The notes beneath the pieces are model-generated. The model was not told where the DNA came from. It saw nothing but the letters and a program-made list of their open reading frames with translations, and did no database searches. A stretch of 64,000 nt of DNA, from contig JAFSOU010000041.1 of assembly GCA_017443265.1 (NCBI GenBank), forward strand, positions 1-64,000, read 5' to 3'. A program made the position numbers and the translations under genes. Below are positions 34,299 to 53,430 of this stretch, piece by piece; position 1 is the stretch's first letter, and each line of letters starts with the position of its first letter. The DNA comes from Bacteroidales bacterium. Lineage in GTDB: Bacteria; Bacteroidota; Bacteroidia; Bacteroidales; P3.

Positions 34299-34538
34299 TT
34301 ATGGAAGATTTCTTGCATACCACGCCCGTACTGTGAAAGCACCTCCGCCGAGCCTCTTTATGCCCGTGTTCCTGTCCGCTATCTCCCCCATAGTGTCCAC
34401 TATGGTCGCACGGAGTTTGTCATCAAGTTCCGCACGGCGGATTTTAAGACGTTCCATCTCGTCACGTATATCCTCAACGACGGACGCCGAGTCCCGCCCA
34501 CTGCAAAAGTTTTCAAACGAATCCTTATTATTTGTCAT
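34299..34538 (-). CDS. small hypothetical protein, helical
   Basis: 79 residues, charged and helical (SVVEDIRDEMERLKIRRAELDDKLRATIVDTMGEIADRN looks like a coiled coil), ending in GIKRLGGGAFTVRAWYARNLP. It has no shared N-terminal motif. Its ATG overlaps the stop of the upstream gene by four bases, so it is translationally coupled and is the last gene of the minus-strand array. Confidence 0.6.
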   Translation of the reverse strand: MTNNKDSFENFCSGRDSASVVEDIRDEMERLKIRRAELDDKLRATIVDTMGEIADRNTGIKRLGGGAFTVRAWYARNLP

Positions 34539-35044
34539 CTCTCAATTTTTGTATCTACAAAAGTGTTTTTCAAATACTCGTCAATCGACAACGTATTGTC
34601 ACAAATCAGTTCTATAAGACTATGAATGCCTTTGGCAAAGCCCCCCACCACCTCTTCTCTTTGTACGACGTCGTCTATCCCTTCGGCAGAGAACTTGTCC
34701 GCAATTATCCTCAATATCATTTCGGGCTTGTCGTAGTCGTAGTCTTGGACAAACATCCTTTCGAGTGTCTGCCTCTTGTCCCCGCCCTTTACGTCAAGCA
34801 TCTTGAGGTTTTTTATCACCGCCGACAACTCTATCTGCCAATGTATGAAATTCTCCGACTCCCCGTCAAACAAACGGCAATATTCACATAGGCACCAGTT
34901 TTCCACAAGCACGAAACGCAAGGCATCCGCTCTCTCACGATACCTTTTGAGAGGGATTGCCATCTCATTAGGACTTGCAAAATCCCCTACTAAACCCTCC
35001 GTATTCCCGTGTAATAGTTTGCGGTACTCCTCAAACGTAACCAT
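34535..35044 (-). CDS. array protein with MxTFEEY N-terminus, unknown function
   Basis: 169 residues. Begins MVTFEEYRKLLHGNTEG, a variant of the array signature. The body is mostly helical and acidic (PLKRYRERADALRFVLVENWCLCEYCRLFDGESENFIHWQIELSAVIKNLKML), with a CxxxC pair, and is not recognised. The leader ACAAATATTATG is shared with other members of the array. It is followed by the small coupled gene at 34299. Confidence 0.65.
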   Translation of the reverse strand: MVTFEEYRKLLHGNTEGLVGDFASPNEMAIPLKRYRERADALRFVLVENWCLCEYCRLFDGESENFIHWQIELSAVIKNLKMLDVKGGDKRQTLERMFVQDYDYDKPEMILRIIADKFSAEGIDDVVQREEVVGGFAKGIHSLIELICDNTLSIDEYLKNTFVDTKIER

Positions 35045-35060
35045 AATATTTGTTTTTTAG

Positions 35061-35531
35061 TTAGATATTCCTACTTATCCCCCCCTGTGCGTTCACGCCA
35101 GGTCTTTTAAATGCCCGTTTGAGCCTCGTCCAAAGGGAGATTTTCTTCTCGAAGGAAACGCAGGTCTCCGAGTTGGGCGTGCCGTTGAGTATTTCACGGG
35201 CGTCCTTGCAATATTCATACTGCGTCTCGCCCGTCTCGTAATTCGTGCAGCCGACACGCCTGCACCTCAAGACCTCGAACGGACCGCCTATCGGGGCAGC
35301 CTCCACCTTACAATGCCTGCAACGGACGCAGAATTGTCTCTCTTGAGGTTTCGGCTCGTCGGGGAGGGACTTCACAAAAACCAGGAAATCTATGAGACAC
35401 CACTTCTTCAGACCTGCCTCCCTTCTGAAACCCGTACCATAACGAAGGCGGTCTTCACTTATTCCGTCATATATCTCAATGAGTCTGTCCAACTCGTTCT
35501 TTATCGCTGATAATTTTTCCTTGTCAGTCAT
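35061..35531 (-). CDS. hypothetical protein with cysteine-rich (zinc-ribbon-like) centre
   Basis: 156 residues from MTDKEKLSAIKNELDRLIEIYDG. The N-terminal half is helical and resembles small Bacteroides phage/plasmid proteins. The centre has CVRCRHC, then CRRVGC, later EYC and SETC, and could bind zinc. It lacks the MITF signature. The conserved box TTTTTGCTATATTATA lies 23-38 bases upstream. I chose the ATG at 35531, since the longer frame reads through that box region. Confidence 0.55.
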   Translation of the reverse strand: MTDKEKLSAIKNELDRLIEIYDGISEDRLRYGTGFRREAGLKKWCLIDFLVFVKSLPDEPKPQERQFCVRCRHCKVEAAPIGGPFEVLRCRRVGCTNYETGETQYEYCKDAREILNGTPNSETCVSFEKKISLWTRLKRAFKRPGVNAQGGISRNI

Positions 35532-35579
35532 ATCTGATGTTTTTCGATACAACTATAATATAGCAAAAAACGAATTGTT

Positions 35580-36476
35580 TCACCATTCCTTGATTACTTG
35601 AAAGCCCCTTTCGGTAAGTCTGCCCTCACGATAAAGACCAACGCAGAAGGCTGGAATAACACGTACGGAGAACACGCTGTCGGGAGCCATAGCGTCATAG
35701 TACAACCCCGTCTCAATGGGGATTTTCTGGACATCTATACGGAAGAGAGCGTAGTGTTCGCCGAAACCGCCCTCCTGCCTCAACACGATTGCAAGTCTCT
35801 CGTCCTCAAAGATTGACATATACGCCCTGCCTTGCGGGTATTTAAGATAGATGTTCTTGTTGTAGGGAAGCAACCCCGACGACTTTATCGACTCCACGTT
35901 CTCGGACGGGGTATAGTGATACAGATACCTGCATCTGCTCCTTATATCGGCACTCACCTCGTTCGGGAGATAAGGCTCGAACTGAAGGTAATACCCTCCT
36001 GCGTCGGACTCGCAATAGTTGCAGAAGTATCCGCCTTTGTGCATATCTTGTATCACCTCGTTCTTTATGAAGTCATCGGGCGGAAGTGCGATATAGACAT
36101 CCACCCCGTTGTAGGACTCGATTTTCTCAATCTGCCCGTCACGGAACTTGTATTTGCTCTTGATGACTTCGGCAAAGTCGTCCAACTCCTTGATGTCCCC
36201 GAGGGATTCTTTCAAGTCGGGCAGAGGAGGCAGAAACACCCTCTGCAACAAATTCCGATGGGTGACGGGTTCCAAGGCATCGTTGCGGGCTTCTTTGCGG
36301 GAACGCAGGTATTCGTCACGCCACCCGTCCAACTCTCCCCTGCCGACGGTCAAACAACTGAAATCGGGTTTTGGTTTGTGCAGTTTCTTCGACAATGCGG
36401 AAAGTCCCGCCCCGTCACGCCCCATACGCTCGTCGGGCCTGCCACGCCCGTTGCAGTATTCATTGAATGTAATCAC
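35580..36476 (-). CDS. array protein: MITFNEY N-terminus fused to an ADP-ribosyltransferase-like domain
   Basis: 298 residues, GTG start. Residues 1-18 are the shared signature (MITFNEYCNGRGRPDERM). A basic linker and a helical middle part follow. The C-terminal part from about residue 185 has CRYLYHYTPSENVESIKSSGLLP, SIFEDERLAIVLRQEGG and a beta-rich end, the H-Y-T...SI...GLLP pattern found in DarT/RNA 2'-phosphotransferase-like ADP-ribosyltransferase folds. Substrate and activity are not known; a catalytic Glu cannot be assigned with certainty. It starts 5 bases after the preceding gene's stop. The T4 capsid-borne Alt protein is also an ADP-ribosyltransferase, a parallel rather than a homology claim. 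Confidence 0.7.
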   Translation of the reverse strand: MITFNEYCNGRGRPDERMGRDGAGLSALSKKLHKPKPDFSCLTVGRGELDGWRDEYLRSRKEARNDALEPVTHRNLLQRVFLPPLPDLKESLGDIKELDDFAEVIKSKYKFRDGQIEKIESYNGVDVYIALPPDDFIKNEVIQDMHKGGYFCNYCESDAGGYYLQFEPYLPNEVSADIRSRCRYLYHYTPSENVESIKSSGLLPYNKNIYLKYPQGRAYMSIFEDERLAIVLRQEGGFGEHYALFRIDVQKIPIETGLYYDAMAPDSVFSVRVIPAFCVGLYREGRLTERGFQVIKEW

Positions 36477-36481
36477 ACTCT

Positions 36482-36898
36482 CTATTTTTTTAGTTTGTCC
36501 ACAAGTTCATCTGTTGTAAGTTCGCCGTTCCAATATTTGAGCAACAAATCCTTGTGTTCCTTTACCCACGTTTTGATTGCGTTGAGTTGCTTGGAACTCA
36601 ACCGCACTGTGTTCATCTTGTCCGCCTTCAACAAAATTTCTGGCGTGTCGGAAATAGACATTGGTATACCCTCTTCAAGTTGCCCCTTGTCACTGGTGTT
36701 GTTCTGAAATTTAATTCTCGGCAAGTTATGCCTTCCCGTGGTTTGCGGATTGTTTATTTGTAGCCATATTATCACCTCAAGTCCCGTGGAACGTTTTGAG
36801 AGATGGGCCATCTCCATAAGCATATCCTCTTCGGGTCTTGTGTCCATACGCTCGTCGAGCCTGCCTTGCCCGTTGCAGTATTCATTGAATGTAATCAC
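36482..36898 (-). CDS. array protein: MITFNEY N-terminus and small PRIKFQNN-type domain
   Basis: 138 residues, GTG start at 36898, where the shared signature begins; the longer frame starts at a TTG just after the stop of the upstream gene. Residues 1-31 read as signature plus RPEEDMLMEMA, with L-M-E at 27-29. The body has LEVIIWLQINNP, LPRIKFQNN, MSISDTPEILL and a C-terminal helix pair (LNAIKTWVKEHKDLLLKYWNGELTTDELVDKL), which I have seen in small Bacteroidota and phage proteins of unknown function. It lies between two other signature genes in one operon. Confidence 0.65.
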   Translation of the reverse strand: MITFNEYCNGQGRLDERMDTRPEEDMLMEMAHLSKRSTGLEVIIWLQINNPQTTGRHNLPRIKFQNNTSDKGQLEEGIPMSISDTPEILLKADKMNTVRLSSKQLNAIKTWVKEHKDLLLKYWNGELTTDELVDKLKK

Positions 36899-36934
36899 AC
36901 CCTCTATTTTAGTCTGTTTTTTAATTCCGCTCAA

Positions 36935-37558
36935 TCATTTTTTATCGTACCACTCATCATATGTCGCAGGGTAATACCTTTTCAGATTACTTTGGAAAGT
37001 GCTCAATTGCAACAACTCCTTGTTATGTTCCGCAATGTAATCAAGAAATGGGTTGGGTGTCATTATGTTGCTCTCCTCATTATAGGATTCTATACAATAT
37101 TGTAGATTGTCAAGACATTCCACGTCGTTTTTGACACCCGGGGCATTTGCTTTGAGAAGTTGCTTCAACCCTTTCAAAATATGACGATACCCTTTCCACG
37201 AACAATCGTTGCCCTGTCGTTTATCGACAAATTTGTCTTTTGTAAAGCGGTCAACCTGACTGAGCAGATTATATTCACCTTTGGCAAAAATGTCCACAAG
37301 CGACACCTCAAAATCAAACATAGTATAGGGCTGAACATCAAGGGTAAGGTAGATGTGAATATGCGGTTCGCACCTGTCTTTCGGTGTATTGAGTTCATTT
37401 TTAAGAGGTCCGTGTACGGCAACTCTGAAATGGTCCCCTCCCCATAGATTGTCCTTTCTTATTGTGGCCATCTCCATAAGCATATCCCCTTCGGGTATTA
37501 TGTACATACGCTCGTCGAGCCTGCCTTGCCCGTTGCAGTATTCTTCGAATGTAATCAT
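36935..37558 (-). CDS. array protein: MITFEEY N-terminus and HxH-containing domain
   Basis: 207 residues. The signature is MITFEEYCNGQGRLDERM, then IIPEGDMLMEMA with L-M-E at 27-29. The body has a conserved-looking RCEPHIHIYLTLD, followed by helical segments (SWKGYRHILKGLKQLLKAN) and ends LKRYYPATYDEWYDKK. The HxHxH cluster suggests metal or nucleotide binding but no family is certain. TATAAATA lies at 37577-37584 on the minus strand, 18 bases before the ATG. It heads the operon 36935-35580. Confidence 0.65.
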   Translation of the reverse strand: MITFEEYCNGQGRLDERMYIIPEGDMLMEMATIRKDNLWGGDHFRVAVHGPLKNELNTPKDRCEPHIHIYLTLDVQPYTMFDFEVSLVDIFAKGEYNLLSQVDRFTKDKFVDKRQGNDCSWKGYRHILKGLKQLLKANAPGVKNDVECLDNLQYCIESYNEESNIMTPNPFLDYIAEHNKELLQLSTFQSNLKRYYPATYDEWYDKK

Positions 37559-37576
37559 AATATTTTTATTTTTCGG

Positions 37577-37612
37577 TATTTATAAAAGTATTCACATATA
37601 ATATAGCAAAAA
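37577..37612 (-). promoter_or_regulatory. array upstream element: TTTTTGCTATATTATA box and TATAAATA
   Basis: Reading on the minus strand: TTTTTGCTATATTATA (37612-37597), then TATAAATA (37584-37577), then an A-rich leader to the ATG. The same order recurs before 42045 (boxes at 42102-42088 and 42075-42068) and 43002 (43055-43039 and 43028-43021); before 40874 the second box is TATAAAATA. TATAAATA is the core of T4 late promoters. The host sigma consensus TAnnTTTG is not matched here. Confidence 0.55.
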
Positions 37613-38272
37613 CTATGCCCGTTGTCCGTCTTCGAGGATGGCGAGGAACTCCCCGTACTCCTCAAAAGTGAGGACGTGACGTGTCGGTACAAGCCTATCA
37701 GTCTCACTCTCATTTATATTGACCTTTGTCCCGTCGGTAAGTTCGGATACGAGGGCATCCGCCAATCTGCCAATCATTACAGGGTCTTTTATCTGCTCTG
37801 CGGACAATTCGTACACATCGTGGCTGAAGTTTACCCCGGATTGAGGGTCGTTAGCATCCAAGTCTTTATCAATCAAATCCTTGGTACTATCATTCAACAA
37901 ACGGTCAACTATTATGTGAATGGCTTTTTCTGGTGTTTTATCCGAGTATAATTTATTCATACCTTCTTTTGTAGAATAGTGGTCAGTAATTCTAAAAACC
38001 AAAACCTTCTCACCCGCCTTTGTCAAAAAAGGACGATAATAACTTTTATAATTTTCAGGCCTCTTTTGGGGCGGTTTGGTTTTCAAATTCCTTATAAACC
38101 ACCTCATAATCTCATCGCCGTCTTTAAAACGCCTGTTCCTGAAATCGTTTTGAAACATAGAGATTGCGGAATCAGTATCCGCAATGCAGGCATCGTAGCT
38201 CCTGCCTCTGCCTTGTTTCTTTTCTCGTACCCAATTAAGTATATTTTGTACGCTCGGAAATAAATTTATCAT
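37613..38272 (-). CDS. array protein with signature-like motif at the C-terminus
   Basis: 219 residues starting MINLFPSVQNILNWVREKKQGRGRSYD. The middle part (YRPFLTKAGEKVLVFRITDHYSTKEGMNKLY, KAIHIIVDRLL) looks like a compact alpha/beta domain but is not recognised. The last 20 residues are LTFEEYGEFLAILEDGQRA preceded by RHV, so the array signature TFEEY appears at the C-terminus, perhaps because a signature gene fused to this one. It starts 15 bases after the stop of the upstream gene and has no box of its own. Confidence 0.6.
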   Translation of the reverse strand: MINLFPSVQNILNWVREKKQGRGRSYDACIADTDSAISMFQNDFRNRRFKDGDEIMRWFIRNLKTKPPQKRPENYKSYYRPFLTKAGEKVLVFRITDHYSTKEGMNKLYSDKTPEKAIHIIVDRLLNDSTKDLIDKDLDANDPQSGVNFSHDVYELSAEQIKDPVMIGRLADALVSELTDGTKVNINESETDRLVPTRHVLTFEEYGEFLAILEDGQRA

Positions 38273-38287
38273 ATAAGTATTTTTTTA

Positions 38288-38785
38288 TTATTCGATTACA
38301 TTGAAAAAAGAAATGACGTTATGGAAGTTGATAAGTTTCTTTTTTATCGGCGGTACAATAAATTTGCAACAATTCTCGGCCCATATTGTCAAACCATCCA
38401 CATACGCCAAATCAAGAAAAATATGAGTTATGTCTATGAAATAATTGTCAATGTCGCCATAGTGCTTGCCGTTACAATAGGAATATATCAACTCGAATTG
38501 TTCATCTGCGGGTCTCCGTCTCAAATTTTCCCGTTCCCACGATTCTTCGCCTTCATAATCGGTGTCCAACACGTTATCGGGCGGTATTTCCCCGCCAAAG
38601 AAATCCTGAACGCTCCGGCGTTTGAGTATGATGAAAGAGGCGATGCTGTCGTCGTCATCAAAAACAACCTTGCTTTGTTCGAAGGCAATGTCCTTGCGGT
38701 CGGCGAGTTCGGGACAGCTGATGAGTTCCGCCAGACGTGGAAGGTCGGCGGGGGTTACGCTTCTTATGGTGTATTTGTTGTTCAT
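38288..38785 (-). CDS. possible GNAT-fold protein
   Basis: 165 residues. The start MNNKYTIRSVTPADLPRLAELI looks like the first strand and helix of a GNAT acetyltransferase, and DDSIASFIILKRRSVQDFFGG could be the next strands. The rest, including CKFIVPPIKKKLINFHNVISFFNVIE, departs from the family, and the acetyl-CoA loop is not evident. A broken relative with MNNEYIIRSITPADL lies at 43079-43247. The box TTTTTGCTATATTATA precedes it at 38824-38809. It lacks the MITF signature. Confidence 0.55.
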   Translation of the reverse strand: MNNKYTIRSVTPADLPRLAELISCPELADRKDIAFEQSKVVFDDDDSIASFIILKRRSVQDFFGGEIPPDNVLDTDYEGEESWERENLRRRPADEQFELIYSYCNGKHYGDIDNYFIDITHIFLDLAYVDGLTIWAENCCKFIVPPIKKKLINFHNVISFFNVIE

Positions 38786-38834
38786 TCCTTATGTTTTTTT
38801 GTTACAACTATAATATAGCAAAAATCTAATTATC

Positions 38835-38894
38835 TTACCATTCCTTGAGTACTTGAAAGCCCTGCCTATTGCAAAATTCTTCGAATGTAATCAT
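38835..38894 (-). pseudogene. 19-codon chimeric mini-gene: array N-terminus joined to the end of the ART-like gene
   Basis: Reads MITFEEFCNRQGFQVLKEW and stop. The first nine residues are the array signature; the last eight match the end of the protein at 35580-36476 (RGFQVIKEW). The bases before and after (ATCAT... and CTTACCATTCC) also match those two genes. It is best explained as a member whose whole middle was deleted. The upstream gene at 38909 and this remnant are separated by 14 bases. Confidence 0.8.
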
Positions 38895-38908
38895 ACAGCA
38901 AGATTTTG

Positions 38909-39346
38909 TCATTTATAAGGTTTTATCTCCGTGTAGTCGGGCATATTTCGCTTTGTTTCATTCGGCACTTTGGTCGAGGAATTGTTTTTATTCCAAGTCT
39001 TCACCAAATACTCCCAGTTGCTCTCTCCATCCTCGTCCGCCTGTCTCAAAAACACCATCAGTTTTTTTCGCATCTTTTCTGACAGAACATCTTTTGCCTG
39101 CCCGTGGGTAAAATATCGGTTATCAGTTATAAAAATAGCCGAATTGAATTTTTTGCCGATTGTTCGGGAATCCACCACGTGAAAATGGGGGATTTGCCCT
39201 CCGTCTCGGCTTCTTATCCAAACGCTATGCTGTCCGTCCAGGTCACCGATGGCCGCCATCTCGAACAGCATATCCTCTTCGGGTATCGTGTCCATACGCT
39301 CGTCGAGCCTGCCACGCCCGTTGCAAAATTCATCGAATGTAATCAT
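38909..39346 (-). CDS. array protein: MITFDEF N-terminus and PHFHV domain (DUF4160-like)
   Basis: 145 residues. The signature MITFDEFCNGRGRLDERM is followed by IPEEDMLFEMA with L-F-E at 27-29. The body has VWIRSRDGGQIPHFHVVD, FITDNRYFTHG and NWEYLVKTWNKNNS...MPDY, an arrangement known from small proteins of Bacteroidota and phages that resemble DUF4160 and have no assigned function. TATAAATA is at 39375-39368, 21 bases before the ATG, but the other box is missing here. Confidence 0.65.
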   Translation of the reverse strand: MITFDEFCNGRGRLDERMDTIPEEDMLFEMAAIGDLDGQHSVWIRSRDGGQIPHFHVVDSRTIGKKFNSAIFITDNRYFTHGQAKDVLSEKMRKKLMVFLRQADEDGESNWEYLVKTWNKNNSSTKVPNETKRNMPDYTEIKPYK

Positions 39347-39420
39347 ATTGTTATGTTTTTTTTTCGTTATTTATAAAAATCCCCGCCTGAATTATGGCAG
39401 AAACATAATAAATATGGTAA

Positions 39421-40281
39421 TCATAGACTTGCAAGTTTGTCTCCATCCTCACAATATAGCGGTGACAACAATGTCAATATGGTCAGACTTTTAGGTGTGT
39501 AGCATTCCGTTATGATTTTACACGTTTCCCTTATTGTGTTCCCGAGTGTGATGCTATCATCCACAATTATTATGTCCTTCCCGTTGAGGGCGTCTATGTA
39601 GTTTCCCCAATAATCATCTTGCAACTTAATGGTGTGTTCTATGACGCTTCTCATTTCCATATCGTCGATGTGGTGGAACTTGAATTTATCCCCCCCCATC
39701 TTTCTGCAACATTTTCTGAAATATGAATAAAAGTAGTTGAATTTTTTCCCGTAGTGTTTTCTGAATGCAGAATTTTCATCGAAAATATAATCATCAACCT
39801 CCTCTATCGTCATTTTCACAAGAATGTCGTCAATATGTTTTGGATTCTCACAGTGCCTTGCAACCACTTTTGCAAAATAGGAGTTCAAATCACTTGTAGA
39901 GGGAATCATTATGGTGATGTCTTTCTTTCCGTGTTTCTTAAAAAACTCACGGACTATATATTCTATTCTGCTCTTTGTTTTTGTTGCATTTGTGAGTACA
40001 TAGCCCTTTTCTTTTTTAAGGGCATACAGTAAGGGATTTCCATCACCGATGTCCCCCTCTTTTCTTTTGAACACGGAATAAACCTCGACATTTGGAACCA
40101 GCGCTGTTATAAGAGTCGGATTTTTTTCTATCGACGTATCAACAAGTTTCTCGTGCCCGTCAGTCACAAAAACCCTTCTATCCAGTTCAACATCAATCCC
40201 CTCGTTCACGAAGAAACGTTCTATGATGTCAAGAATATCATCTTGTTCCTGCCCGTTGCAAAATTCCTTGAATGTAATCAT
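39421..40281 (-). CDS. array protein: MITFKEF N-terminus and phosphoribosyltransferase-like domain (1)
   Basis: 286 residues from MITFKEFCNGQEQDDIL; a longer frame from 40389 runs into the gene upstream. A middle part with VYSVFKRKEGDIGDGNPLLYALKKEKGY and DITIMIPSTSDLNSYFAKVVAR leads to the PRPP-loop motif DIIIVDDSITLGNTIRETCKII, which fits the type I PRTase fold. It shares its whole organisation with the protein at 42148-43002. The substrate is unknown. The ATG lies 11 bases after the preceding stop, and the TATAAAAT in the last codons of that gene could act as its promoter. Confidence 0.7.
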   Translation of the reverse strand: MITFKEFCNGQEQDDILDIIERFFVNEGIDVELDRRVFVTDGHEKLVDTSIEKNPTLITALVPNVEVYSVFKRKEGDIGDGNPLLYALKKEKGYVLTNATKTKSRIEYIVREFFKKHGKKDITIMIPSTSDLNSYFAKVVARHCENPKHIDDILVKMTIEEVDDYIFDENSAFRKHYGKKFNYFYSYFRKCCRKMGGDKFKFHHIDDMEMRSVIEHTIKLQDDYWGNYIDALNGKDIIIVDDSITLGNTIRETCKIITECYTPKSLTILTLLSPLYCEDGDKLASL

Positions 40282-40292
40282 AATGTTATGTT

Positions 40293-40874
40293 TTAAAATT
40301 TTATAAATTTGAGCGGGGAAGTTTCCACAAGCAGTCGCTTCCCCTCGCGTACTGCATCCGTTGCCCTTTGAACCATTTCCGCCGGACACCTCCCCGATTT
40401 CAACTCCTCACCAACAAAAGCCACATTTTTCTCGAGTTCCCTATAAAGTTCTTCGGGGAACTCGTTATACATATAGTCGGTATGATAGGTGTAGAAATCA
40501 AAAATTATGCGTATTGACAATTCTATGGGCATCATTTTCCGATAGTAGTCGGAATGCGAGAACTTTTCGTTTATAAACCCTGCTTCTTTGTTTGAAAGGA
40601 AAGTGGTCAGCGGTTCAAATTCTTTTTCCAAGAGTTTATCGAGTGCCGATTTATCTTTGATACCGAAAAGTGTCTTGGTTTCCATCTTCCCGTGTATCCT
40701 TCTTTTATAGTAATATTCGTCAAGGATTTCCCTCGGGGCATTGCCCAAATATATATCAAGATACTCCGTTTTCACATTATACCCGCCAAGTTCCTTATAA
40801 AAATCCTCAACACGTCCGCTAACCTCCGACCATACATAATCATTCCATAGGGTAATGTTCTCTTTGATAGTCAT
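40293..40874 (-). CDS. array protein, N-terminally shortened paralogue of 40987-42045
   Basis: 193 residues beginning MTIKENITLWNDYVWSEVSGRVEDFYKELGGYNVKTEYLDIYLG. From ENI onward it aligns with the C-terminal half of the next gene (ENIQRVKDWVWIAASGSVEQLYRKHGALQIPNEYLPLYF, then KTLFGIKD / KTIFGLKD). It lacks the signature and the first 150 residues, including most of the GNAT-like part. It keeps the upstream boxes (40930-40915 and a TATAAAATA at 40902-40894). Possibly a truncated copy that is still translated. Confidence 0.55.
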   Translation of the reverse strand: MTIKENITLWNDYVWSEVSGRVEDFYKELGGYNVKTEYLDIYLGNAPREILDEYYYKRRIHGKMETKTLFGIKDKSALDKLLEKEFEPLTTFLSNKEAGFINEKFSHSDYYRKMMPIELSIRIIFDFYTYHTDYMYNEFPEELYRELEKNVAFVGEELKSGRCPAEMVQRATDAVREGKRLLVETSPLKFIKF

Positions 40875-40893
40875 TATATTTTGTTTTTTTTAG

Positions 40894-40965
40894 TATTTTA
40901 TAAAAGTATTCACATATAATATAGCAAAAACTATGCCCGTTGTCCGTCTTCGAGGATGGCGAGGA
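40894..40965. repeat. duplicated intergenic segment with the last codons of another array gene
   Basis: Nearly identical to 37577-37647: it holds the TATAAA-like box, the TTTTTGCTATATTATA box and, on the minus strand, the codons LAILEDGQRA and stop of the gene at 37613-38272. Here the codons have no gene in front of them. This is the footprint of a recombination that copied a cassette boundary. Confidence 0.8.
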
Positions 40966-40986
40966 GTCGAAAATAAATGCAATGAG

Positions 40987-42045
40987 TCAGACTTGTCCTC
41001 GTTTCAGCAACTCCAAGGGCTCAAGAACGGACACCATATTCAACGCTTCCTCTGCATTTTTAATGCACTCGTCAATATGAAGCCTCATCCTACCTTCCGG
41101 AATCCTGCCTGCACTCCGCTCACCTCGGAGGTAGTTCAGCGTTTCCTCAAATTTGTCGTAAAGATACTGTGGAAGGTCATAAAAATTCTCATTTGAAATT
41201 TTGGTGATGAATTTATCGGCAATCATCTTGGCTTTTTCAAGTCGGGTGTGTTGAACGAAATATCTGTCATATACAAGCCTTTCGTCCAAAGAATCGGCAT
41301 CGACCCTTTTTAAAAAATCAATAAGCGGACCGTATGCGTCTCTAACGAGCTCATTGTATGTTTCTTTGTCCTTTAATCCAAATATCGTTTTTAGTCTCGC
41401 TTTTTTCTCTTTTTCTGTAAGCTGGTTTTCATCTTCGCCACTGAATAAATAATGGAAGTGGAATCCGTCATCGGCCAATTTGTATTCTTCGTCAAAGTAG
41501 AGGGGCAGATATTCGTTCGGGATTTGAAGTGCCCCGTGTTTTCGATACAACTGTTCTACTGAACCGCTCGCCGCAATCCATACCCAATCCTTGACCCTTT
41601 GTATATTCTCCCTAATTATCATTTCGACAAGAAGTGCGCCTGCCTCGTGCTTGTTATTTCTAAAACAGGTTATCCCGACAGATTTGTTGCCCCCGAGATA
41701 GTCGTTGAACACATCCACTGCTATTATTTCTTCATCGTAAAAACCGAGTTTTACCATCGGGGACTTTTTAAGAAGGTCTTTTTTTGACTGGTATCCTTTA
41801 AAGCCCCCTAAATTTTCATAACCGTCTTGAAGGATGTCCCAAATTGTTCCGATATTTTGTTTGATGAAAGCAAAATCGGAAGCATCATCCATATCATAGC
41901 ATTCGATATGTATTTTATGCCCGAGGTACTCTAAACTCTCACCTTGTCTTGATTCGTTTATTGATTTGTCATTGTCGGTAAAGATTGTTTTTTGTCCGTC
42001 ACGACTGTATTCGCTTTTCTTACAATAATCGCCAAAACTAATCAT
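40987..42045 (-). CDS. array protein: MISFGDY N-terminus and GNAT-like domain
   Basis: 352 residues. The signature is diverged (MISFGDYCKKSEYS). Residues about 55-200 resemble a GNAT acetyltransferase (IDPIWD-like helix, VKLGFYDEEIIAVDVFNDYLGGNKSVGITCFRNNKHEAGALLVEMIIREN, VWIAASGSVEQLYRKHGAL), with a helical C-terminal domain (LKTIFGLKDKETYNELVRDAYGPLIDFLKRV). The acceptor is unknown. TATAAATA lies at 42075-42068, 22 bases upstream, and the first box at 42102-42088. It contains no clear L-x-E site near the N-terminus other than SLEY. Confidence 0.62.
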   Translation of the reverse strand: MISFGDYCKKSEYSRDGQKTIFTDNDKSINESRQGESLEYLGHKIHIECYDMDDASDFAFIKQNIGTIWDILQDGYENLGGFKGYQSKKDLLKKSPMVKLGFYDEEIIAVDVFNDYLGGNKSVGITCFRNNKHEAGALLVEMIIRENIQRVKDWVWIAASGSVEQLYRKHGALQIPNEYLPLYFDEEYKLADDGFHFHYLFSGEDENQLTEKEKKARLKTIFGLKDKETYNELVRDAYGPLIDFLKRVDADSLDERLVYDRYFVQHTRLEKAKMIADKFITKISNENFYDLPQYLYDKFEETLNYLRGERSAGRIPEGRMRLHIDECIKNAEEALNMVSVLEPLELLKRGQV

Positions 42046-42147
42046 AATATTTTGTTTTTTTTTTTAGTATTTATAAAAGTATTCACATATAATATAGCAA
42101 AGAATCCCGAAAAACAAAATCCTTGCCGTCAAAAATCTGGATACCCG

Positions 42148-43002
42148 CTATTTCTTGTATCTTTTAGACAGAAGCGTTATCACATCTATGGAGGTGGGGG
42201 CGTATTGCTGTATTACTCTGACGCACTCCGAGACCGTGGCTCCCGATGACAATACGTCGTCGAGTACAAGCACCCTCTTTCCACCAAACAATTCAAGAGC
42301 GTCCTTCTCGGTGTATTTTCCCGATAGCGACACTATGTTTTTGATGTATTTCAAATACTTCTTGTTCATCTTTCCTGCCTCGAAATACTTTCCCATCTTC
42401 ATAATGTCGGCGTATATCTGTTGTTCCACTTTTTCATAGGTGTCGGGGTGGTCTTTCCTTATCTGCTCGAAATCCCTGCCAAAGTCAAGAATATACTGCT
42501 TTTCGGTTTTTTTGAAATAGTCTTCAATAATCTTGTCGGCGTGTACCCTTTTTGCTAACACTCTCATAAAACGCTTGTTTACATCGCTGTGGGAAGGGCA
42601 GGAAACAATTATGTCGTAATGCAGGTTCAAAGAGTTACAGGCCGAAAGAAATTTCTTCACATATTTGTTGATTTCAGCTTGTGTAATTTTGAAAGTCCAC
42701 CCGTACTTTTTTTTCAAAGCGTGTGTGAAAGGGTTTCCGTCGATATTCTTGCCAATCTCGTTTTTTAAGGGCGTACGTTTCAGTAAAGAGTACACTTTCA
42801 AATTCTTGTACCTATAAACCAAATGTTCATTTTCAAGAAACACCACGCCGTCGTCGGTGTCATTTAAACTAACGGTATTGTCGACGTAATTCACCACGAT
42901 TCCCTCTGCGATATAGTCGGCGAAACAACTATGCGGATTACCATCCATAAACATTCTGTTTATCTCCCTCATCCGCTTGCTATATTCTTCGAATGTAATC
43001 AT
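42148..43002 (-). CDS. array protein: MITFEEY N-terminus and phosphoribosyltransferase-like domain (2)
   Basis: 284 residues from MITFEEYSKRMREINRMF. The middle part YSLLKRTPLKNEIGKNIDGNPFTHALKKKYGW and YDIIVSCPSHSDVNKRFMRVLAKR leads to KRVLVLDDVLSSGATVSECVRVI, the PRPP-binding loop of type I PRTases. Clearly a paralogue of 39421-40281, but the two are strongly diverged outside these blocks. The boxes are at 43055-43039 and 43028-43021. It is the first intact gene of the array in the direction of transcription. Confidence 0.7.
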   Translation of the reverse strand: MITFEEYSKRMREINRMFMDGNPHSCFADYIAEGIVVNYVDNTVSLNDTDDGVVFLENEHLVYRYKNLKVYSLLKRTPLKNEIGKNIDGNPFTHALKKKYGWTFKITQAEINKYVKKFLSACNSLNLHYDIIVSCPSHSDVNKRFMRVLAKRVHADKIIEDYFKKTEKQYILDFGRDFEQIRKDHPDTYEKVEQQIYADIMKMGKYFEAGKMNKKYLKYIKNIVSLSGKYTEKDALELFGGKRVLVLDDVLSSGATVSECVRVIQQYAPTSIDVITLLSKRYKK

Positions 43003-43078
43003 AATATCTTGTTTTTTCTCTATTTATAGTTCTTTACCTATAATATAGCAAAAAACAACGAAAAAAACGTTGGGGCTC

Positions 43079-43247
43079 TCATTCGCTGAAAGCGGAGAGG
43101 GGTATGGTCACGAAACGCTCGCCCTTGTGGGAGGCTTTCACACCCTTGAGGGTGTTCCACTGCTGGGCGGTGGCGGTGACTATGACGGAGGTGAAATAGG
43201 CGAAGGTCTGCTGGTGTTATGCTTCTTATAATGTATTCGTTGTTCAT
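43079..43247 (-). pseudogene. chimeric remnant: GNAT-like N-terminus joined out of frame to another C-terminus
   Basis: Codons for MNNEYIIRSITPADL match the start of the gene at 38288-38785. Right after this point a different reading frame continues with QTFAYFTSVIVTATAQQWNT, LKGVKASHKGERFVTIPLSA and the stop at 43079-43081. The second part is of an unknown protein. The frame change shows that the gene is dead. A CAACG/CGTTG hairpin with a T run follows it, then the TTTTTGCTATATTATA box. Confidence 0.7.
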
Positions 43248-43261
43248 TTTTTACTTTATTT

Positions 43262-43321
43262 ATCTTCCCACACTTCCTTGTGTGGTTACTAGTGGGGGCT
43301 CTCTTCGAGAGCATTTTTTTT
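43262..43321. repeat. two-hairpin intergenic repeat unit
   Basis: CCCACACTTCCTTGTGTGG, the linker TTACTAGTGG and GCTCTCTTCGAGAGC followed by T residues. It is the same type as at 14728-14832 and is the short form, with nothing inserted in the first hairpin. Confidence 0.65.
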
Positions 43322-43328
43322 GTAATTT

Positions 43329-43505
43329 CTATTGTTTTTTATTGTACTTGAATTGTCGAAGCATCGCTTCCTCTTGACTGCCGATTTCGAAGCCGAGGGC
43401 ACGGGCTTTGTTCAGGAACAGCTCCGGCTCTTGACCGGTTGCAAGTCCTTGTCTTACATCGTTTTCTATTGCCTTGGTTAAAATGATAAGTTCGTCGGGT
43501 GTCAT
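43329..43505 (-). CDS. small hypothetical protein, 58 residues
   Basis: Begins MTPDELIILTKAIENDVRQG and continues LATGQEPELFLNKARALGFE to the end FKYNKKQ. The amphipathic helical pattern and the absence of rare codons suggest a real small gene, but I know no family. It is separated from both neighbours by intergenic repeat or A+T-rich sequence, and no host-type promoter was found upstream. Confidence 0.5.
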   Translation of the reverse strand: MTPDELIILTKAIENDVRQGLATGQEPELFLNKARALGFEIGSQEEAMLRQFKYNKKQ

Positions 43506-43639
43506 GGTTTTGATTTTTAGTGAACTGTGATCAGTGAACTGTGAACTGTGTTTTTGTTTATTTTAGATATCATGCCAATTATAATGTTTTTTTTGTTTGT
43601 TGTCAATAGTGTTGACCTTTTTTTTTTCTGAAAAAAGAT

Positions 43640-43712
43640 TCAATCCAACCTCCTGCCGTCGGCGACGAGTTCCTCGATGCTGTTGTACTGGGCCACTACA
43701 TGGTTTTTCAGA
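43640..43712 (-). pseudogene. 3' fragment related to the gene at 45181-45471
   Basis: Reads LKNHVVAQYNSIEELVADGRRLD and stop, which corresponds to DIVVAEYSSLDEMVLDGWRMGT at the end of the intact gene. Nothing upstream continues the frame as coding sequence; instead an ATCTGA-type simple repeat follows at 43715-43770. Confidence 0.65.
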
Positions 43713-43775
43713 TTGACAGATTAACCGATTTTCAGATTATCTGACTATCCGAATATCTGAACATCTGAGTATCTA

Positions 43776-44963
43776 TTATGATAGCACTATTATTCTAACA
43801 GATTCGTCGTCGGTGAAGCGGAACAGGTCGGATTTTCCCGATTTCGGCTGGTAAAGCCATTCTATCTCGTTCCACTGGCAGGGCGATATTATTTGGCCGT
43901 CGAGGTCGATAAGTCCGTACTTGCCGTCGGTGTCGGTAACGCGGACAAGATGGCACTCCACGCAGTTGTCGAAATCCGTGTCTTCGGGCTTGTGCCAGAC
44001 GAAGCCTTCGATGTCCTTCCACAGACATTCGGTTCGTATCTCGCCCGATTTCTCGAATCCCCACAGTCCGTCGCCGAAGGTTACTTTGCGGTAGTCGCCG
44101 AAAAGGAAACAATCCGCTGGCTGTCCGTCGGTTATGTCGATGCACCGTATCGCCTCGCTCCTGCGGTCCTGCCACTGGGTTTCGGGCAGCAGGTTGCCGC
44201 CCCAGTCGATGAGGTGTGTGTTGCCCGAAGCGTCCCACACCTTATAGCCGCAGAAGACCTCCATCGTGGGACTGGGCTCGTAACGCCGTGTGGCGCGGTT
44301 CTGGCGGTAGGGTATGCGTCCGTTGAAGACATCCACGTCCTGCCACTGGCAGTCCACCCGCATCTCGCCTTTCCTGCCGACGACACCCCACAAGCCGTCG
44401 GTGTTTTCTATCTTGTATTGGTCGCTGTAGAGGTATTGCACGGCGATGCCCTCGTATTCGGCCACGGCACGGCCGTTGGGGTCGATCACCGTCACACGTC
44501 CTTTCGCCAAGTCGGTGAGGGCGAAACAGTTATACCTGTCGCCCACGGGTGCCACGGCATCCCAACAGCATGGGGTGACCATCTCGCCGGTGGTTACCAT
44601 TATGCCCTGCTTTCCGGCTTTGTCGCAAACTTGGAAAAGCAGCTGTCCTAGGTAGCGCATCTCCGTCCACCGGCAGGGTGCGACTAGGTTGCCCGTGCGG
44701 TCGGCGAGGCCCCAGAGACCGCGGGAGTTCTTCACTTCCACGACGTTGTGGAAACGCACTGCGACCTCCTTCCATTGGCACGGCAACAGCGTTGCGCCAT
44801 TTTCGTCGCACACTCCCCATAGTCCGTCGGTATTCTGCACGGCATAACTACCGTTCACCTCCTTCACCGCAGCGTATCGGCAGGGGATGATGTTGCAGCC
44901 TTTGGCATCGCTCACGCCCCAAAGACCATCCTTTTCTACGATTTTTGTTTTGTTTGCTTTCAT
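43776..44963 (-). CDS. WG-repeat protein
   Basis: 395 residues built of WG beta-rich repeats: DGLWGVSDAKGCNIIPCRY, DGLWGVCDENGATLLPCQW, RGLWGLADRTGNLVAPCRW, DGLWGVVGRKGEMRVDCQW, DGLWGFEKSGEIRTECLW and KYGLIDLDGQIISPCQW. No signal peptide or membrane helix follows the ATG at 44963, so it is probably cytosolic. A -7 box TATCTTTG lies at 45037-45030. The frame open from 45245 crosses that promoter. The same repeats are fused to a protein kinase at 53689-55185. The function of WG repeats is unknown; a binding scaffold is likely. Confidence 0.82.
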   Translation of the reverse strand: MKANKTKIVEKDGLWGVSDAKGCNIIPCRYAAVKEVNGSYAVQNTDGLWGVCDENGATLLPCQWKEVAVRFHNVVEVKNSRGLWGLADRTGNLVAPCRWTEMRYLGQLLFQVCDKAGKQGIMVTTGEMVTPCCWDAVAPVGDRYNCFALTDLAKGRVTVIDPNGRAVAEYEGIAVQYLYSDQYKIENTDGLWGVVGRKGEMRVDCQWQDVDVFNGRIPYRQNRATRRYEPSPTMEVFCGYKVWDASGNTHLIDWGGNLLPETQWQDRRSEAIRCIDITDGQPADCFLFGDYRKVTFGDGLWGFEKSGEIRTECLWKDIEGFVWHKPEDTDFDNCVECHLVRVTDTDGKYGLIDLDGQIISPCQWNEIEWLYQPKSGKSDLFRFTDDESVRIIVLS

Positions 44964-45029
44964 ATTGTTTTGCGTAAAATATTGATAATCAAATTGTAAA
45001 ACATTTGTGTCTTTCGTCGTTCGACACCA

Positions 45030-45037
45030 CAAAGATA
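45030..45037 (-). promoter_or_regulatory. putative -7 box (TATCTTTG) of the WG-repeat gene
   Basis: Minus-strand TATCTTTG, 67 bases before the ATG; no TTG at the expected -33 distance. Confidence 0.5.
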
Positions 45038-45116
45038 CTACGGAAAAAGCCCCGCTCGTCGTTCTTTTTTGGTCCTTTTTTGGGGGTAGAGAACGGGGGC
45101 CTAATTGATAATATAG

Positions 45117-45157
45117 CAAAAAACCTCCCCGTTCCGAAAAGGGAGGGGGAGGTTTTG
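45117..45157. terminator. strong hairpin, probably bidirectional terminator
   Basis: AAAACCTCCCC pairs with GGGGGAGGTTTT. On the minus strand it is followed by TTTTTTGCTATATTATC, the same box as in the array, so that box can follow a terminator as well as precede a gene. It ends the minus-strand unit 51218-45181. Confidence 0.75.
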
Positions 45158-45180
45158 TATTTGAGGGATTGTTGGACGGT

Positions 45181-45471
45181 TCAAGTGCCCATACGCCAGC
45201 CGTCAAGCACCATCTCGTCGAGTGATGAATATTCGGCCACCACAATGTCGGTGCGGCTCATTTGCATCAGCATGAATTTCACCTTCTCTTTCGGAATGGC
45301 GCACACTACATATTTACGGTTCACCAAATCGTTGATGGCAATGATTGTATTGTATTCCTCAAGTTCAGGGGTGAGATATTTTTCGTTCCAGCGCAGCTGG
45401 GGCGAAAACATCGGAGAATCGTAATGCTCGGCAAACATCGCACGTTGTCTTTTAAATTCTGTATTATCCAT
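45181..45471 (-). CDS. small hypothetical protein
   Basis: 96 residues from MDNTEFKRQRAMFAEHYDSP. The C-terminal part VVCAIPKEKVKFMLMQMSRTDIVVAEYSSLDEMVLDGWRMGT looks like a small alpha/beta unit. A remnant of a relative is at 43640-43712. It starts 40 bases after the AddA-like gene, on the same strand. No known function. Confidence 0.55.
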   Translation of the reverse strand: MDNTEFKRQRAMFAEHYDSPMFSPQLRWNEKYLTPELEEYNTIIAINDLVNRKYVVCAIPKEKVKFMLMQMSRTDIVVAEYSSLDEMVLDGWRMGT

Positions 45472-45510
45472 AATAATCGTTTTATGATAACATTTGCAAT
45501 AAATCATATT

Positions 45511-48500
45511 TTAAAAATTCAACTCCACCAAGCACCCGAGTACGGAGTAATATATCAGCTTGGTCTTGACATTGATTCCGGCTGCCACCAATGCTTCTTG
45601 GTAAGCTGTGAGCTGCGCAGCATACTTACCGACAAATTCTTTACTCGAGCTATCCAAAACATTTTTCAAAATTCCCGGGTAATTCTTGAAGTCAATAAGG
45701 ATGCACTCTTTCTCTGCCGTGTACCACAGCAAGTCCATTTCGCCAGCGATGACCTGGCCGTTATTTTCATGACGGAATGGCACCTCGTGCTGAATCTTGA
45801 CGGCTTTTCCATATTTTTCTTCCAAAAATTGGTAAAGAGCGGCTATGGAATCGATGATACCTTCTGCATCGGGCAACATCCGATCCATACCAAAGGACTT
45901 CACCGTCTGTTTAGCCTTGCTGATCATCTCTTGTCTGTCAGCCTCGGGGCGATAGATGGCAAAAATGTTGTGAATGCAGGTGCCCATTATGTCGTATTCT
46001 TCACCATGACCAACCGTGATAGGACGAGGCACTTGGTTCTGAACGGGATAAAGCACCTTGGGTTTTGTTTGCTTGGCCAAAGTGTCATCGTCTATCTTGC
46101 TTGGAGAAAGATATTTCACATCAAAATCCGTGGCAGATATTTTTTCCTTGCGACAGCAATAATCCGACGGCTCTGGTTTGCCAACATACGTTCCATCGTC
46201 ATTTACCTGCACAAATCTCGACAGCTTAATGCCTTTATCAACGCCCCAAATAGCCTGACAATCGGCGGTGCCAGTGATAACAGGCGTAATGCCACAATCC
46301 ACTAACCACGGCATCGGGTTCGTCTTTCCTGCAAGCGAGGTGGTGATGAGATAGTCGCGAGCGCGCGTAACGCCAACGTATAGTACGCGTTGCGATTCAT
46401 AAGACAGTCGGTCTTTATATTTCCTGTATGTGTCTAACCCACTAATATCATTCATCATATCTTCTGGCAAATTGGAGTTGTTTGACGAAAAGAAAGAGGG
46501 AAGACACGTAAGATAATAATCGGAATAGAGTTGGTCGGGCTTGGGCTCGGTGGTTCTTACATAGTTGACACCAAAGACAAAGCGTTTTTTCAACTTCTTT
46601 TCGTTCAGTGAATCATTGTCCAACGAGCAGAGAATGACGATGTTCCATTGAAGGCCTTTTGACTTGTGGTAGGTCAGTACCCGAACGCCTTCGCGGAAGA
46701 AACCTTCATTCACGGTAACGCCTTCGTCGTCAAGATGTTCAAGATAATGTTCTATCGAAGAGGCTTGTCCCAAAGTGATGGCGTTGGCGTCGAACTTCTT
46801 GGCATCTTCGATAACGGCCTGCAGGGTGCGTTGGCGTTTCGCTGCATTGCCCCATTTCTGGCAACTGTTTATAATATCCAACTCAACGACCAGCGTTTTT
46901 ACTATGTCGCTCACCGGGAGTGTCTTAAGTTTCTCTTTCAAAGCCGCCAATTTACCAAAATCAGGCAACTCCAGCACTTTATCTTTGTTCTCTATCACAT
47001 CGGCAGTTTTCACTCCGAAAAGCAGATGGGCGATTTCGGCTTTCAGAAGCGGCGACTCGTCAATTATGTAGTTGAGGAGCAGACGCACAAGACGCAATTC
47101 CTTGCTGTTGACACTGATAGTACTTTCCATTACTACAGGAATATCCTTGGCTTGCAAAGCATTTGTGATATCGGCGACATCCGCATTGCTTCTGGCCAAA
47201 ACGGCGATATCCGAATATTGGGCGGGACGGAGTTTAAGGCTATCTTTGTCGAAAACTTCTTTGATTTCGCTTTTGCCGTCCACAATATCGCGTACCTGCC
47301 GTGCGACGGAATTGAAGAGTTTCTCCTTGCTTGCCGAAGCCCTTTTTTGGCCGGGTTCAAGCGTCTTTTCCTGCTCCCAATGCCACAGTGCCGGAGTGTC
47401 GTTTGGCAGCGATTCTGTACGGTGGGCTTTGAGCACCACCATATCAGGATCCAAATAGTCAAACACCTTGGTAAAAACAGCCGAAGTGGTGTCCACCAAA
47501 GGTTTCAAAGAACGGCGCGACTCTTTCAATGTGTCGAAGTCCATGTCCGGAACTTTGTTTTTCGTATCTTCGACGATTTTGTCCGTCAAGGCCTGTACAA
47601 GCACCGTGTCGCAACCGCGGAAACCGTAGATGGCCTGTTTGGGGTCGCCCACCCAGTAGCTGTGTTCCACCAAATCCGACAACAAGTCGAAAATGCGGAT
47701 TTGCTTCGGGTTGGAGTCCTGGAACTCATCCACAAACACATATTTCACCGACTGAGAGATATCTGATTGAACTTCACTATCTTGCAACAGTTGTATGAAC
47801 TTGATCTCCATGTCGTTGAATTCAATCAAGCCGTGTTCCTCCTTGAACTGTTCGAACAACTTTGACCACCCACGGGCAATTTTGAATATGCGTTCAATGC
47901 AGCCGTAATACGTGGCGCGCATATCGTTTTCGCTCTTGGTCGGGGTTGTCACAAAAGCAAAGCGTCCGTCGGCGCCTAACAGCAGTCTGGCCAATTCTTT
48001 CGATTTGCTTTCAGAAACGGACAGGTCGTTGATGCCAAAGGCGTTGGCTGTTTCCACAATATCCTGAACCAGTGGTTTCCAGAAACTGTCGCCAATTTTG
48101 GTTGAAATACTCTGTTTGATACCAAATGTCTCGGCAAAATCTCGGAACGCGGCCACATCTGCATCTGTGACAACTTTGGTCAGGGTGCGGTTGAGATAGC
48201 TGGTTTTGACATCTTCGGTGATGGTTTCTACAGAAGCGCTCAGTCCCAGCTTGTACCAGTATTTCTTGATATATCGCAACCCGATAGAATGTACAGTGCC
48301 GATGGCGGCAGAATCGAGCTCTGCTGCTTCGGAGTACAACCCGTATTTCAGAAACTTCTCACGGGCGTTTTTCTTCAAATCGGCGGCGGCGGCATCGGTG
48401 AATGTGGAAGCGATAATCTGCGAAGGTTTGCAGAGACCTGCTTTGACATTGGTAACCATTTCTTCGGTAAGACGGAAGGTCTTGCCCGAACCTGCTCCGG

Positions 48501-51218: not shown

Positions 51219-51298
51219 ATTTTATTAATTTATTATCCAATTATTTATGTGTTCCACTATTTGATCTTGCCACGATATATATTCTATAATTAATCTTG

Positions 51299-52153: not shown

Positions 52154-52253
52154 AATAAAAAAAATATCTTCGGACCCCTAATTAACTATTATTCTTCCAT
52201 CCCCCCCCCTCCGTTGCCGAGTCTATTAAACAATGTGGAGCGGAAAGATTTTG

Positions 52254-52284
52254 CAAATTTACGAAAAAAATCTGATATTGTCAA
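52254..52284 (-). promoter_or_regulatory. Bacteroidota-type promoter for 52153
   Basis: Minus strand TTG (52284-52282), 20 bases, TAAATTTG (52261-52254). The surrounding 60 bases are nearly the same as those at 53341-53407. Confidence 0.8.
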
Positions 52285-52363
52285 GCACAAAAGCGCCCGA
52301 CAATATCAAATCAGGACAAAATGCCGCACAAGCTGTTGGCCAACAGAGCCTCAACGGACATTA

Positions 52364-53293: not shown

Positions 53294-53399
53294 AATATTT
53301 GTATTTTTAATGAAAGGACTCCTAATTGTCTTTTTTACTCCATCTCCCACCCACCATTGCCGGAGTCCCGATAAACAATGCAGGTCGGAAAGATTTTTG

Positions 53400-53430
53400 C
53401 AAATTTACGAAAAAAATCCCATCCCGCCAA
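53400..53430 (-). promoter_or_regulatory. Bacteroidota-type promoter of the pentapeptide-repeat gene
   Basis: Minus strand TTG (53430-53428), 20 bases, TAAATTTG (53407-53400). Confidence 0.8.

What the first reader, a model, noticed from the sequence alone, without database searches (positions are those of the whole stretch)
34535..43002. Array of unrelated proteins sharing one N-terminus that resembles the T4 capsid-targeting sequence
Seen: eight minus-strand genes start with M-x-T/S-F-x-E/D-Y/F (MVTFEEY, MITFNEY twice, MITFEEY twice, MITFDEF, MITFKEF, MISFGDY), four of them followed by the near-identical CNG(R/Q)GR(L/P)DERM, while their bodies differ completely. At DNA level about 55 bases are nearly identical at 36423-36476, 36845-36898, 37505-37558 and 39293-39346. 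Known: T4 internal head proteins share the N-terminus MKTYQEFIAE, which sends them into the prohead and is cleaved by gp21. Inference: this is a bank of phage-capsid cargo cassettes, borne by the chromosome either as a relic of a T4-like phage of Bacteroidota or as a satellite that loads its proteins into a helper phage. I know of no described chromosomal array of this kind.
Basis: partly seen in the sequence, partly recalled or inferred. Interest (0 to 1): 0.92.

Follow-up and report, generated by a model that had tools for sequence, protein, structure and literature searches.

The report
Phage-capsid cargo genes in bacterial chromosome
A gut bacterium carries, with no phage around them, a row of unrelated genes that all begin with the same short 'load me into the phage head' tag and sit behind phage-type switches; the same cargo is found with other tags in giant T4-like phages and in other bacterial chromosomes, which suggests that bacteria keep stocks of phage head cargo.

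Summary
In detail: eight intact minus-strand genes and one remnant share the leader M-(I/V)-(T/S)-F-x-(E/D)-(Y/F). The phage reading is supported. The bodies (two phosphoribosyltransferases, ART-like, GNAT-like, DUF4160-like proteins) recur in T4-like jumbo phages and in other Bacteroidales chromosomes with different leaders. In phosphoribosyltransferase homologues the leader ends in (hydrophobic)-x-E|GI, and leaderless cellular homologues start at M-GI, so cutting after Glu, the T4 prohead-protease rule, would restore the native start. Four leader genes have the T4 late-promoter motif TATAAATA just upstream. The closest large phage record (388 kb) has about 20 genes with a similar leader, most behind TATAAATA, plus gp23-type capsid and S77 prohead-protease genes; the host genome has neither. 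The array sits at the edge of a ~21.8-kb island inserted at the 5' end of mnmC and absent from two same-genus genomes. No integrase or replication gene was recognised there, so a satellite is unlikely. Other Bacteroidales MAGs carry similar clusters. Whether this is a live cargo bank, a host weapon or a recent relic is open; no phage with exactly this leader on these cargoes was found.

The parts
42148..43002 (-). PRTase cargo, leader MITFEEY..DYIAE|GI; TATAAATA begins 26 nt upstream; 63% identical to phage contigs L077/L078
40987..42045 (-). GNAT-like cargo, leader MISFGDYC; TATAAATA upstream; 29% identical to a Tenacibaculum phage pT24 protein
40293..40874 (-). leaderless partial paralogue of the GNAT-like protein; array promoter present
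39421..40281 (-). PRTase cargo, leader MITFKEF..FVNE|GI; 75% identical to the 388-kb phage G249 and to the RUG11939 chromosome; 40% to Lak phages
38909..39346 (-). DUF4160-like cargo, leader MITFDEFCNGRGRLDERM..LFE|MA; TATAAATA upstream; 41% identical to HAN091 phage-like contig L092, 39% to UBA1215
38862..38894 (-). remnant cassette: leader MITFEEFCNRQ fused to the tail of an ART-like gene
38288..38785 (-). leaderless gene behind array promoter; homologue in phage G249 next to the homologue of the following gene, same order
37613..38272 (-). leaderless gene whose C-terminus reads LTFEEYGEFLAILEDGQRA; homologue adjacent in phage G249
36935..37558 (-). DUF4160-like (PHIHIY) cargo, leader MITFEEYCNGQGRLDERM..LME|MA; TATAAATA upstream; 35% identical to UBA1215 array
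36482..36898 (-). DUF4160-like cargo, leader (GTG)ITFNEYCNGQGRLDERM..LME|MA; 78% identical to RUG11939
35580..36476 (-). ART-like cargo, leader (GTG)ITFNEYCNGRGRPDERM; homologues in UBA1215 array and phage G249
35061..35552 (-). leaderless gene behind array promoter, no homologue found
34535..35044 (-). cargo, leader MVTFEEY..NE|MAIPLKRY; 53% identical to UBA1195, 63% over the part held from RUG11939
34299..34538 (-). last ORF of the array, runs across the island junction and is probably truncated by it
43039..43051 (-). array-private promoter-like element TTGCTATATTATA (others end at 42100, 40927, 38821, 37609, 35566); 6 exact copies in the whole genome, all here
43021..43028 (-). TATAAATA, T4 late-promoter motif (others start at 42075, 39375, 37584)
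34304..34328 (+). left island junction: copy of the first bases of mnmC
34329..56138 (.). strain-specific island carrying the array plus WG-repeat, UvrD, PDDEXK, pentapeptide and Ser/Thr-kinase genes
56130..56843 (+). intact mnmC-like gene at the right junction

Best explanation
The array is a set of capsid-cargo genes of T4-like jumbo-phage origin, held in a chromosomal island. Each leader gene joins a short capsid-targeting propeptide (aromatic residues at positions 4 and 7) to an effector body. When a compatible T4-like phage infects, its late transcription would start at the TATAAATA elements, the leader would send the proteins into the prohead core, the phage's S77-type prohead protease would cut after Glu (xxE|GI, LxE|MA) to release the native effector, and the virion would carry it into the next cell. 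Shown: shared leader, same bodies with other leaders in phages and chromosomes, the junction rule, the late-promoter motif, gp23/S77 in phages versus none in the host, the insertion. Inferred: expression on infection, packaging, cleavage, delivery, and who benefits.
For: Leader and its confinement to this locus. Same bodies with different leaders: PRTase 75% identical to phage G249 (leader MGNIKKFDEFV) and to the RUG11939 chromosome (MEKIKNFSEFI); ART body with MEKIKNFDEY in UBA1215 and MVHIKRTNE|MAG in G249; DUF4160 body with MKKFSDFV in L092. Bodies conserved while leaders change: DUF36482 vs RUG11939 body pN 0.06, leader pN 0.45, PRTase body dN/dS about 0.1. Junction: of the leader-bearing PRTase homologues that could be read, all but one fit (hydrophobic)-x-E|(M)G(I/L), while proteobacterial homologues start at MGI. 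Late promoters: TATAAATA upstream of 4 of 9 leader starts against 0 of 20,000 Markov-generated sets reaching 4; in phage G249 it occurs 127 times against about 19 expected, 87 genes having it within 60 nt upstream. gp23 and S77 present in G249, absent from the window's genome and from UBA1215; RUG11939 lacks gp23 and has only a weak S77 match below cut-off. T4 precedents: CTS residues 4 and 7 target, 8 and 10 process (PMC9026906); internal proteins are diverse behind one CTS (PMC3012670); cleavage after Glu (PMC5694885); late promoter TATAAATA (PMC1524935). Tree: PRT42148 sister to phage contig L077 (100/100), PRT39421 in a clade with G249 and RUG11939 (100/99).
Against: No phage with exactly the MITFEEYC leader on these cargoes was found; scans of viral contigs gave one real phage gene starting MITFEEYC (L019), on another body. 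The CNGQGRLDERM segment has no counterpart in T4 as I know it, and for the GNAT, ART and 35044 proteins the cut site is unclear. Some cassettes are decayed (38894 remnant, truncated 34299 ORF). Part of the TATAAATA enrichment could come from shared descent of the upstream repeats rather than selection. No virion proteomics or expression data exist.
Confidence: 0.62

Rival explanations
1. Inert relic: a cluster of internal-protein genes of a T4-like phage was captured in the island by chance and is decaying; nothing is expressed or packaged.
For: Remnant cassette at 38894 and truncated last ORF; island absent from same-genus G002 and G003; phages themselves can carry leader genes in clusters (L092, G249 77-84 kb).
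Against: Eight leader ORFs are intact; bodies show dN/dS about 0.1 against RUG11939, though this averages over any time spent in phages; similar cargo-only clusters occur in other Bacteroidales MAGs without detected gp23 and with no S77 match over cut-off.
Confidence: 0.24
2. The shared N-terminus is only a recombination handle or gene-conversion product (promoter plus first codons), with no targeting role.
For: DNA repeats run through promoter and leader, and the 38894 remnant shows deletions between units.
Against: Leaders at 42045 and 35044 keep F4 and Y7 with synonymous codon changes; other phages show the same architecture with different leader sequences; the leader-body junction obeys the Glu rule in distant homologues.
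Confidence: 0.05
3. The leader is a signal for another export system such as an extracellular contractile injection system or a T6SS.
For: ART, PRTase and GNAT domains are also typical of injected effectors (general knowledge; no tool result).
Against: No Phage_sheath_1 or VipB sheath in the window's genome or in the three other array genomes tested, by searches that do find them in control genomes; similar leaders occur in phages with capsid and prohead-protease genes.
Confidence: 0.03
4. The array is the cargo of a phage satellite that rides a helper phage and moves its own DNA.
For: Sharp insertion at mnmC with imperfect direct repeats.
Against: No integrase, primase, terminase or capsid-remodelling gene recognised in the island.
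Confidence: 0.06

Closest known systems
T4 internal head proteins IPI-IPIII with capsid-targeting sequence
   Same: Unrelated bodies behind one short N-terminal leader with aromatics at 4 and 7, late-promoter motif, predicted cut after Glu; proposed role of delivering effectors
   Different: Here in a bacterial chromosome without capsid or protease genes; leader is MITFEEYC and often longer than 10 residues; bodies include enzymes
T4 Alt (packaged ADP-ribosyltransferase)
   Same: ART-like cargo behind a candidate propeptide
   Different: No sequence relation shown; the ART assignment rests on a sub-threshold Pfam match and motifs, and the model was of low confidence
Lak megaphage and rumen jumbo-phage PRTase homologues
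   Same: Homologous bodies (40-75% identity) with leader plus xxE|GI
   Different: Other leader families (MNxNIxxxM..LFE, xIKxFxEF); genes in phage genomes
Phage-inducible chromosomal islands and other phage satellites
   Same: Chromosomal, predicted to be activated by infection
   Different: No integrase, replication or packaging functions found; would use the head for protein, not DNA

Membership tests
T4-type capsid-targeted internal proteins | Short N-terminal leader shared by unrelated proteins | tested here: met
T4-type capsid-targeted internal proteins | Aromatic residues at leader positions 4 and 7 | tested here: met
   All nine copies; importance of positions 4 and 7 in T4 from PMC9026906
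T4-type capsid-targeted internal proteins | Cleavage site after Glu between leader and mature protein | tested here: met
   By sequence rule only, for PRTases and DUF4160-like proteins; unclear for GNAT and ART proteins; cleavage itself not tested
T4-type capsid-targeted internal proteins | T4 late promoter TATAAATA upstream | tested here: met
   All 4 transcription units led by a leader gene; the unit led by 40874 has TATAAAATA
T4-type capsid-targeted internal proteins | Encoded in a phage genome with gp23-type capsid and S77 protease | tested here: not met
   Homologues are, in G249 and others; this array is chromosomal and the genome lacks both
T4-type capsid-targeted internal proteins | Present in virions | not testable with these tools
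   needs proteomics
Phage satellite | Integrase and replication or packaging-redirection genes | tested here: not met
   None recognised in 34329-56138
Contractile injection system cargo | Sheath/baseplate apparatus in the genome | tested here: not met
   Only the sheath families PF04984 and PF05943 were searched; absent

The most novel reading that the evidence does not exclude
Bacteria maintain chromosomal arrays of capsid-addressed effectors, switched on by the infecting T4-like phage's own late transcription, as a defence or counter-parasite: the phage is made to fill its own heads with host-chosen enzymes, which spoils the virions or the next infection. Leader type in each array tracks the local phage's packaging signal.
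Probability: 0.2. Interest if true: 0.97.

Novelty: new variant of a known kind. Interest (0 to 1): 0.82.

Why it matters
It extends the T4 capsid-targeting principle to unrelated enzyme cargoes in jumbo phages of gut Bacteroidota and Bacillota, gives a sequence rule (swappable leader + xxE|native start) to predict virion cargo in uncultured phages, and shows that such cargo cassettes sit in clusters in bacterial chromosomes lacking phage head genes. That makes testable whether hosts or phages use chromosomal stocks of head cargo.

Tried and rejected
Pattern scans of viral contigs for the exact MITFEEYC leader: apart from L019, the hits were internal or chance matches. Apparent leader hits in relative G148 lie in non-coding repeats. 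Single-protein queries to viral contigs found no relatives; the alignment query did. LR745208 (huge phage) shares a DUF4160-like body but no leader. Structure models of the ART-like and GNAT-like proteins were of low confidence (pLDDT 42 and 35) and were not used for fold searches. A satellite reading was rejected for lack of hallmark genes; a contractile-injection reading is disfavoured because no sheath gene was found. No paper found in the library describes such a chromosomal array; the library is partial.
Full report
Observation. Eight minus-strand ORFs start with M(I/V)(T/S)Fx(E/D)(Y/F), and four continue as CNG(R/Q)GR(L/P)DERM, exactly as reported; a ninth copy survives as a remnant at 38894. 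F at position 4 and Y/F at position 7 are invariant, and the two most diverged copies (42045, 35044) keep them through synonymous codon changes. The degenerate DNA pattern for the leader occurs five times in the genome, only here.

Genes. Pfam and PHROG searches give two phosphoribosyltransferases (42148, 39421), a DUF4160-like protein (36482, just under the curated cut-off) and a weak Tox-ART-HYD1 match for 35580. Alignment relates 40987 to a Tenacibaculum phage pT24 protein; I call it GNAT-like from its sequence, which no library confirmed. The proteins at 38909 and 36935 carry PHFHV / PHIHIY motifs and I group them with DUF4160. Leaderless genes (40293, 38288, 37613, 35061) are interspersed.

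Phage kinship. Against annotated phages, both PRTases hit the Prevotella Lak megaphages (40% identity over residues 27-276, E 2e-49 for 39421). An alignment of homologues fetched uncultivated phage contigs and bacterial genomes. The closest are a 388-kb phage contig (G249/L065, 75% identity) and a rumen Bacteroidetes MAG, RUG11939 (75%), for 39421, and phage contigs L077/L078 (63%) for 42148. A tree places 39421 in a clade with G249 and RUG11939 (100/99) and 42148 as sister to L077 (100/100). G249 also holds homologues of the ART-like protein, and of 38288 and 37613 next to each other in the same order as in the window.

Leader and body are separable. In RUG11939 the same bodies (PRTase 75%, DUF4160-like 78%) begin MEKIKNFSEFI and MDKIKKFDEFV; in G249 the PRTase begins MGNIKKFDEFV; in UBA1215 the ART-like protein begins MEKIKNFDEY; in L092, a phage-like contig of an Erysipelotrichales bin, unrelated proteins, a PRTase and a DUF4160-like protein share MK(T/S/K)(L/F)xEF(I/V), including MKSLVQFIAEA, close to the T4 leader MKTYQEFIAE quoted in the finding. 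Comparing DUF36482 with RUG11939, the body has pN 0.06 and the leader 0.45. So within one replicon the leader is constant and bodies vary; between replicons the body is constant and leaders vary.

Cut site. In the PRTase family the shared part begins at GI or GL. Leader-bearing homologues end the leader in (hydrophobic)-x-E: FVNE, YIAE, FLNE, RIDE, RLDE, QLIE, YIVE, NIFE, FIDE, ILNE, ILRE, YIPE and so on, with one exception (L090, RCE); in L068 a Met follows the Glu (LVE|MGI). Several proteobacterial homologues have no leader and start MGI. DUF4160-like cargo has LxE|MA, where the Met looks like the ancestral start. T4 and giant-phage prohead proteases cut after Glu (PMC5694885; PMC9026906).

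Promoters. TATAAATA, the T4 late promoter (PMC1524935), stands upstream of 43002, 42045, 39346 and 37558; none of 20,000 Markov-generated sets of the nine upstream regions reached 4. The upstream regions are partly repeats of each other, so the nine are not fully independent. In G249 the motif occurs 127 times (about 19 expected), and 87 genes have it within 60 nt upstream. About 20 G249 genes share an xI(K/L/M)xFxE(F/Y)-like leader. Of 21 genes matched by a mechanical leader pattern, six of them evident chance matches, 12 have TATAAATA within 60 nt of the start, against 75 of 466 other genes. A second element, TTGCTATATTATA, occurs six times in the host genome, always upstream of array genes; it resembles the TTTCCAATATATTA element upstream of G249 genes. 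That resemblance is by eye.

Head genes. PF07068 (gp23) and PF03420 (S77 prohead protease) both match in G249, in a Lak-like contig (G251), in the 400-kb contig of a RUG13941 bin (G254) and in the Horse_feces88 bin (G259); in HAN091 (G257) gp23 matches and S77 only weakly; G252 has S77 alone. Neither is found in the window's genome, UBA1215, RUG10916 or three other Bacteroidales genomes with homologues; RUG11939 has no gp23 and only a weak S77 match below cut-off in a 3938-aa frame. MAG incompleteness limits absence claims for the other genomes.

Insertion. In same-genus G002, window 32645 and 56137 are about 250 bp apart, and in G003 the sequence joins at mnmC. The array lies at the left edge of a ~21.8-kb insertion (34329-56138) beginning in a copy of the first bases of mnmC; its last ORF runs into the junction. 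The island also carries a UvrD-PDDEXK pair, a kinase with PADLOC mads_6/PD-T4-6-type matches, pentapeptide and WG-repeat genes; the PDDEXK partner is missing from 60 family genomes at the cut-off used. I recognised no integrase or replication gene. This is reminiscent of a defence island, but that is inference.

Recurrence. UBA1215 (L088 7164-13862) has a nine-gene cluster next to aspS, with the leader xxIKNFDE(F/Y) on several genes, most behind a repeated promoter containing TATCTTTG (host-like) and ATAAATA. RUG11939 has at least four such genes at a contig end; RUG10916 and UBA1195 have two each.

Function. Following T4, where internal proteins are a diverse set delivered into the next host behind one conserved targeting sequence (PMC3012670), I read the array as head cargo that a compatible infecting phage would express and load. 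Whether this serves phage, host or nobody is not decided. Purifying selection on bodies (dN/dS about 0.1) argues against long decay, but may reflect time spent in phages. The lack of a phage with this exact leader on these cargoes and of any expression or proteomic data are the main gaps.

Noticed in passing
L088 7164-13862 (UBA1215, DBXJ01000059.1): A second chromosomal array of nine genes, several with leader xxIKNFDE(F/Y), most behind a repeated promoter of host type (TATCTTTG) plus an ATAAATA element; shares ART, PRTase and DUF4160-like bodies with the window.
   Followed up: partly
G249 (IMGVR_UViG_3300031998_000001), loci L125-L144: 388-kb phage contig with TATAAATA within 60 nt upstream of 87 genes, two leader families (xIKxFxEFI and MxHI(K/R)(R/K)(I/L)(N/D)E) and gp23/S77 genes.
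   Followed up: partly
L150 (G259 C172) and L084: A phage-like contig with S77 in a Bacteroidales bin, and another contig of that bin, share a different leader, MKKVLLTExE(Y/F)xxVxxxL, on unrelated proteins.
   Followed up: no
L058 (Lak-B2) versus L067: The Lak-B2 PRTase copy has TAA in the leader where the related contig L067 has TAG (read as Gln).
   Followed up: no
window 34100-34328 and 55281-56160: Remnant duplication of the 3' end of gene 55281 plus the start of mnmC at the left island edge, suggesting a repeated-insertion hotspot.
   Followed up: partly
window 45511-55185: UvrD-PDDEXK pair, PDDEXK-like protein, pentapeptide protein and PD-T4-6-like kinase on the same island, possibly anti-phage systems.
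   Followed up: partly
window 37613-38272 and 40941-40965: The leader-like string LTFEEYGEFLAILEDGQRA lies at the C-terminus of a protein; its end (LAILEDGQRA) is duplicated before 40874. It could be a C-terminal propeptide or a fossil.
   Followed up: no
window 43038-43247: Decayed copy of the start of gene 38288 upstream of the array.
   Followed up: no
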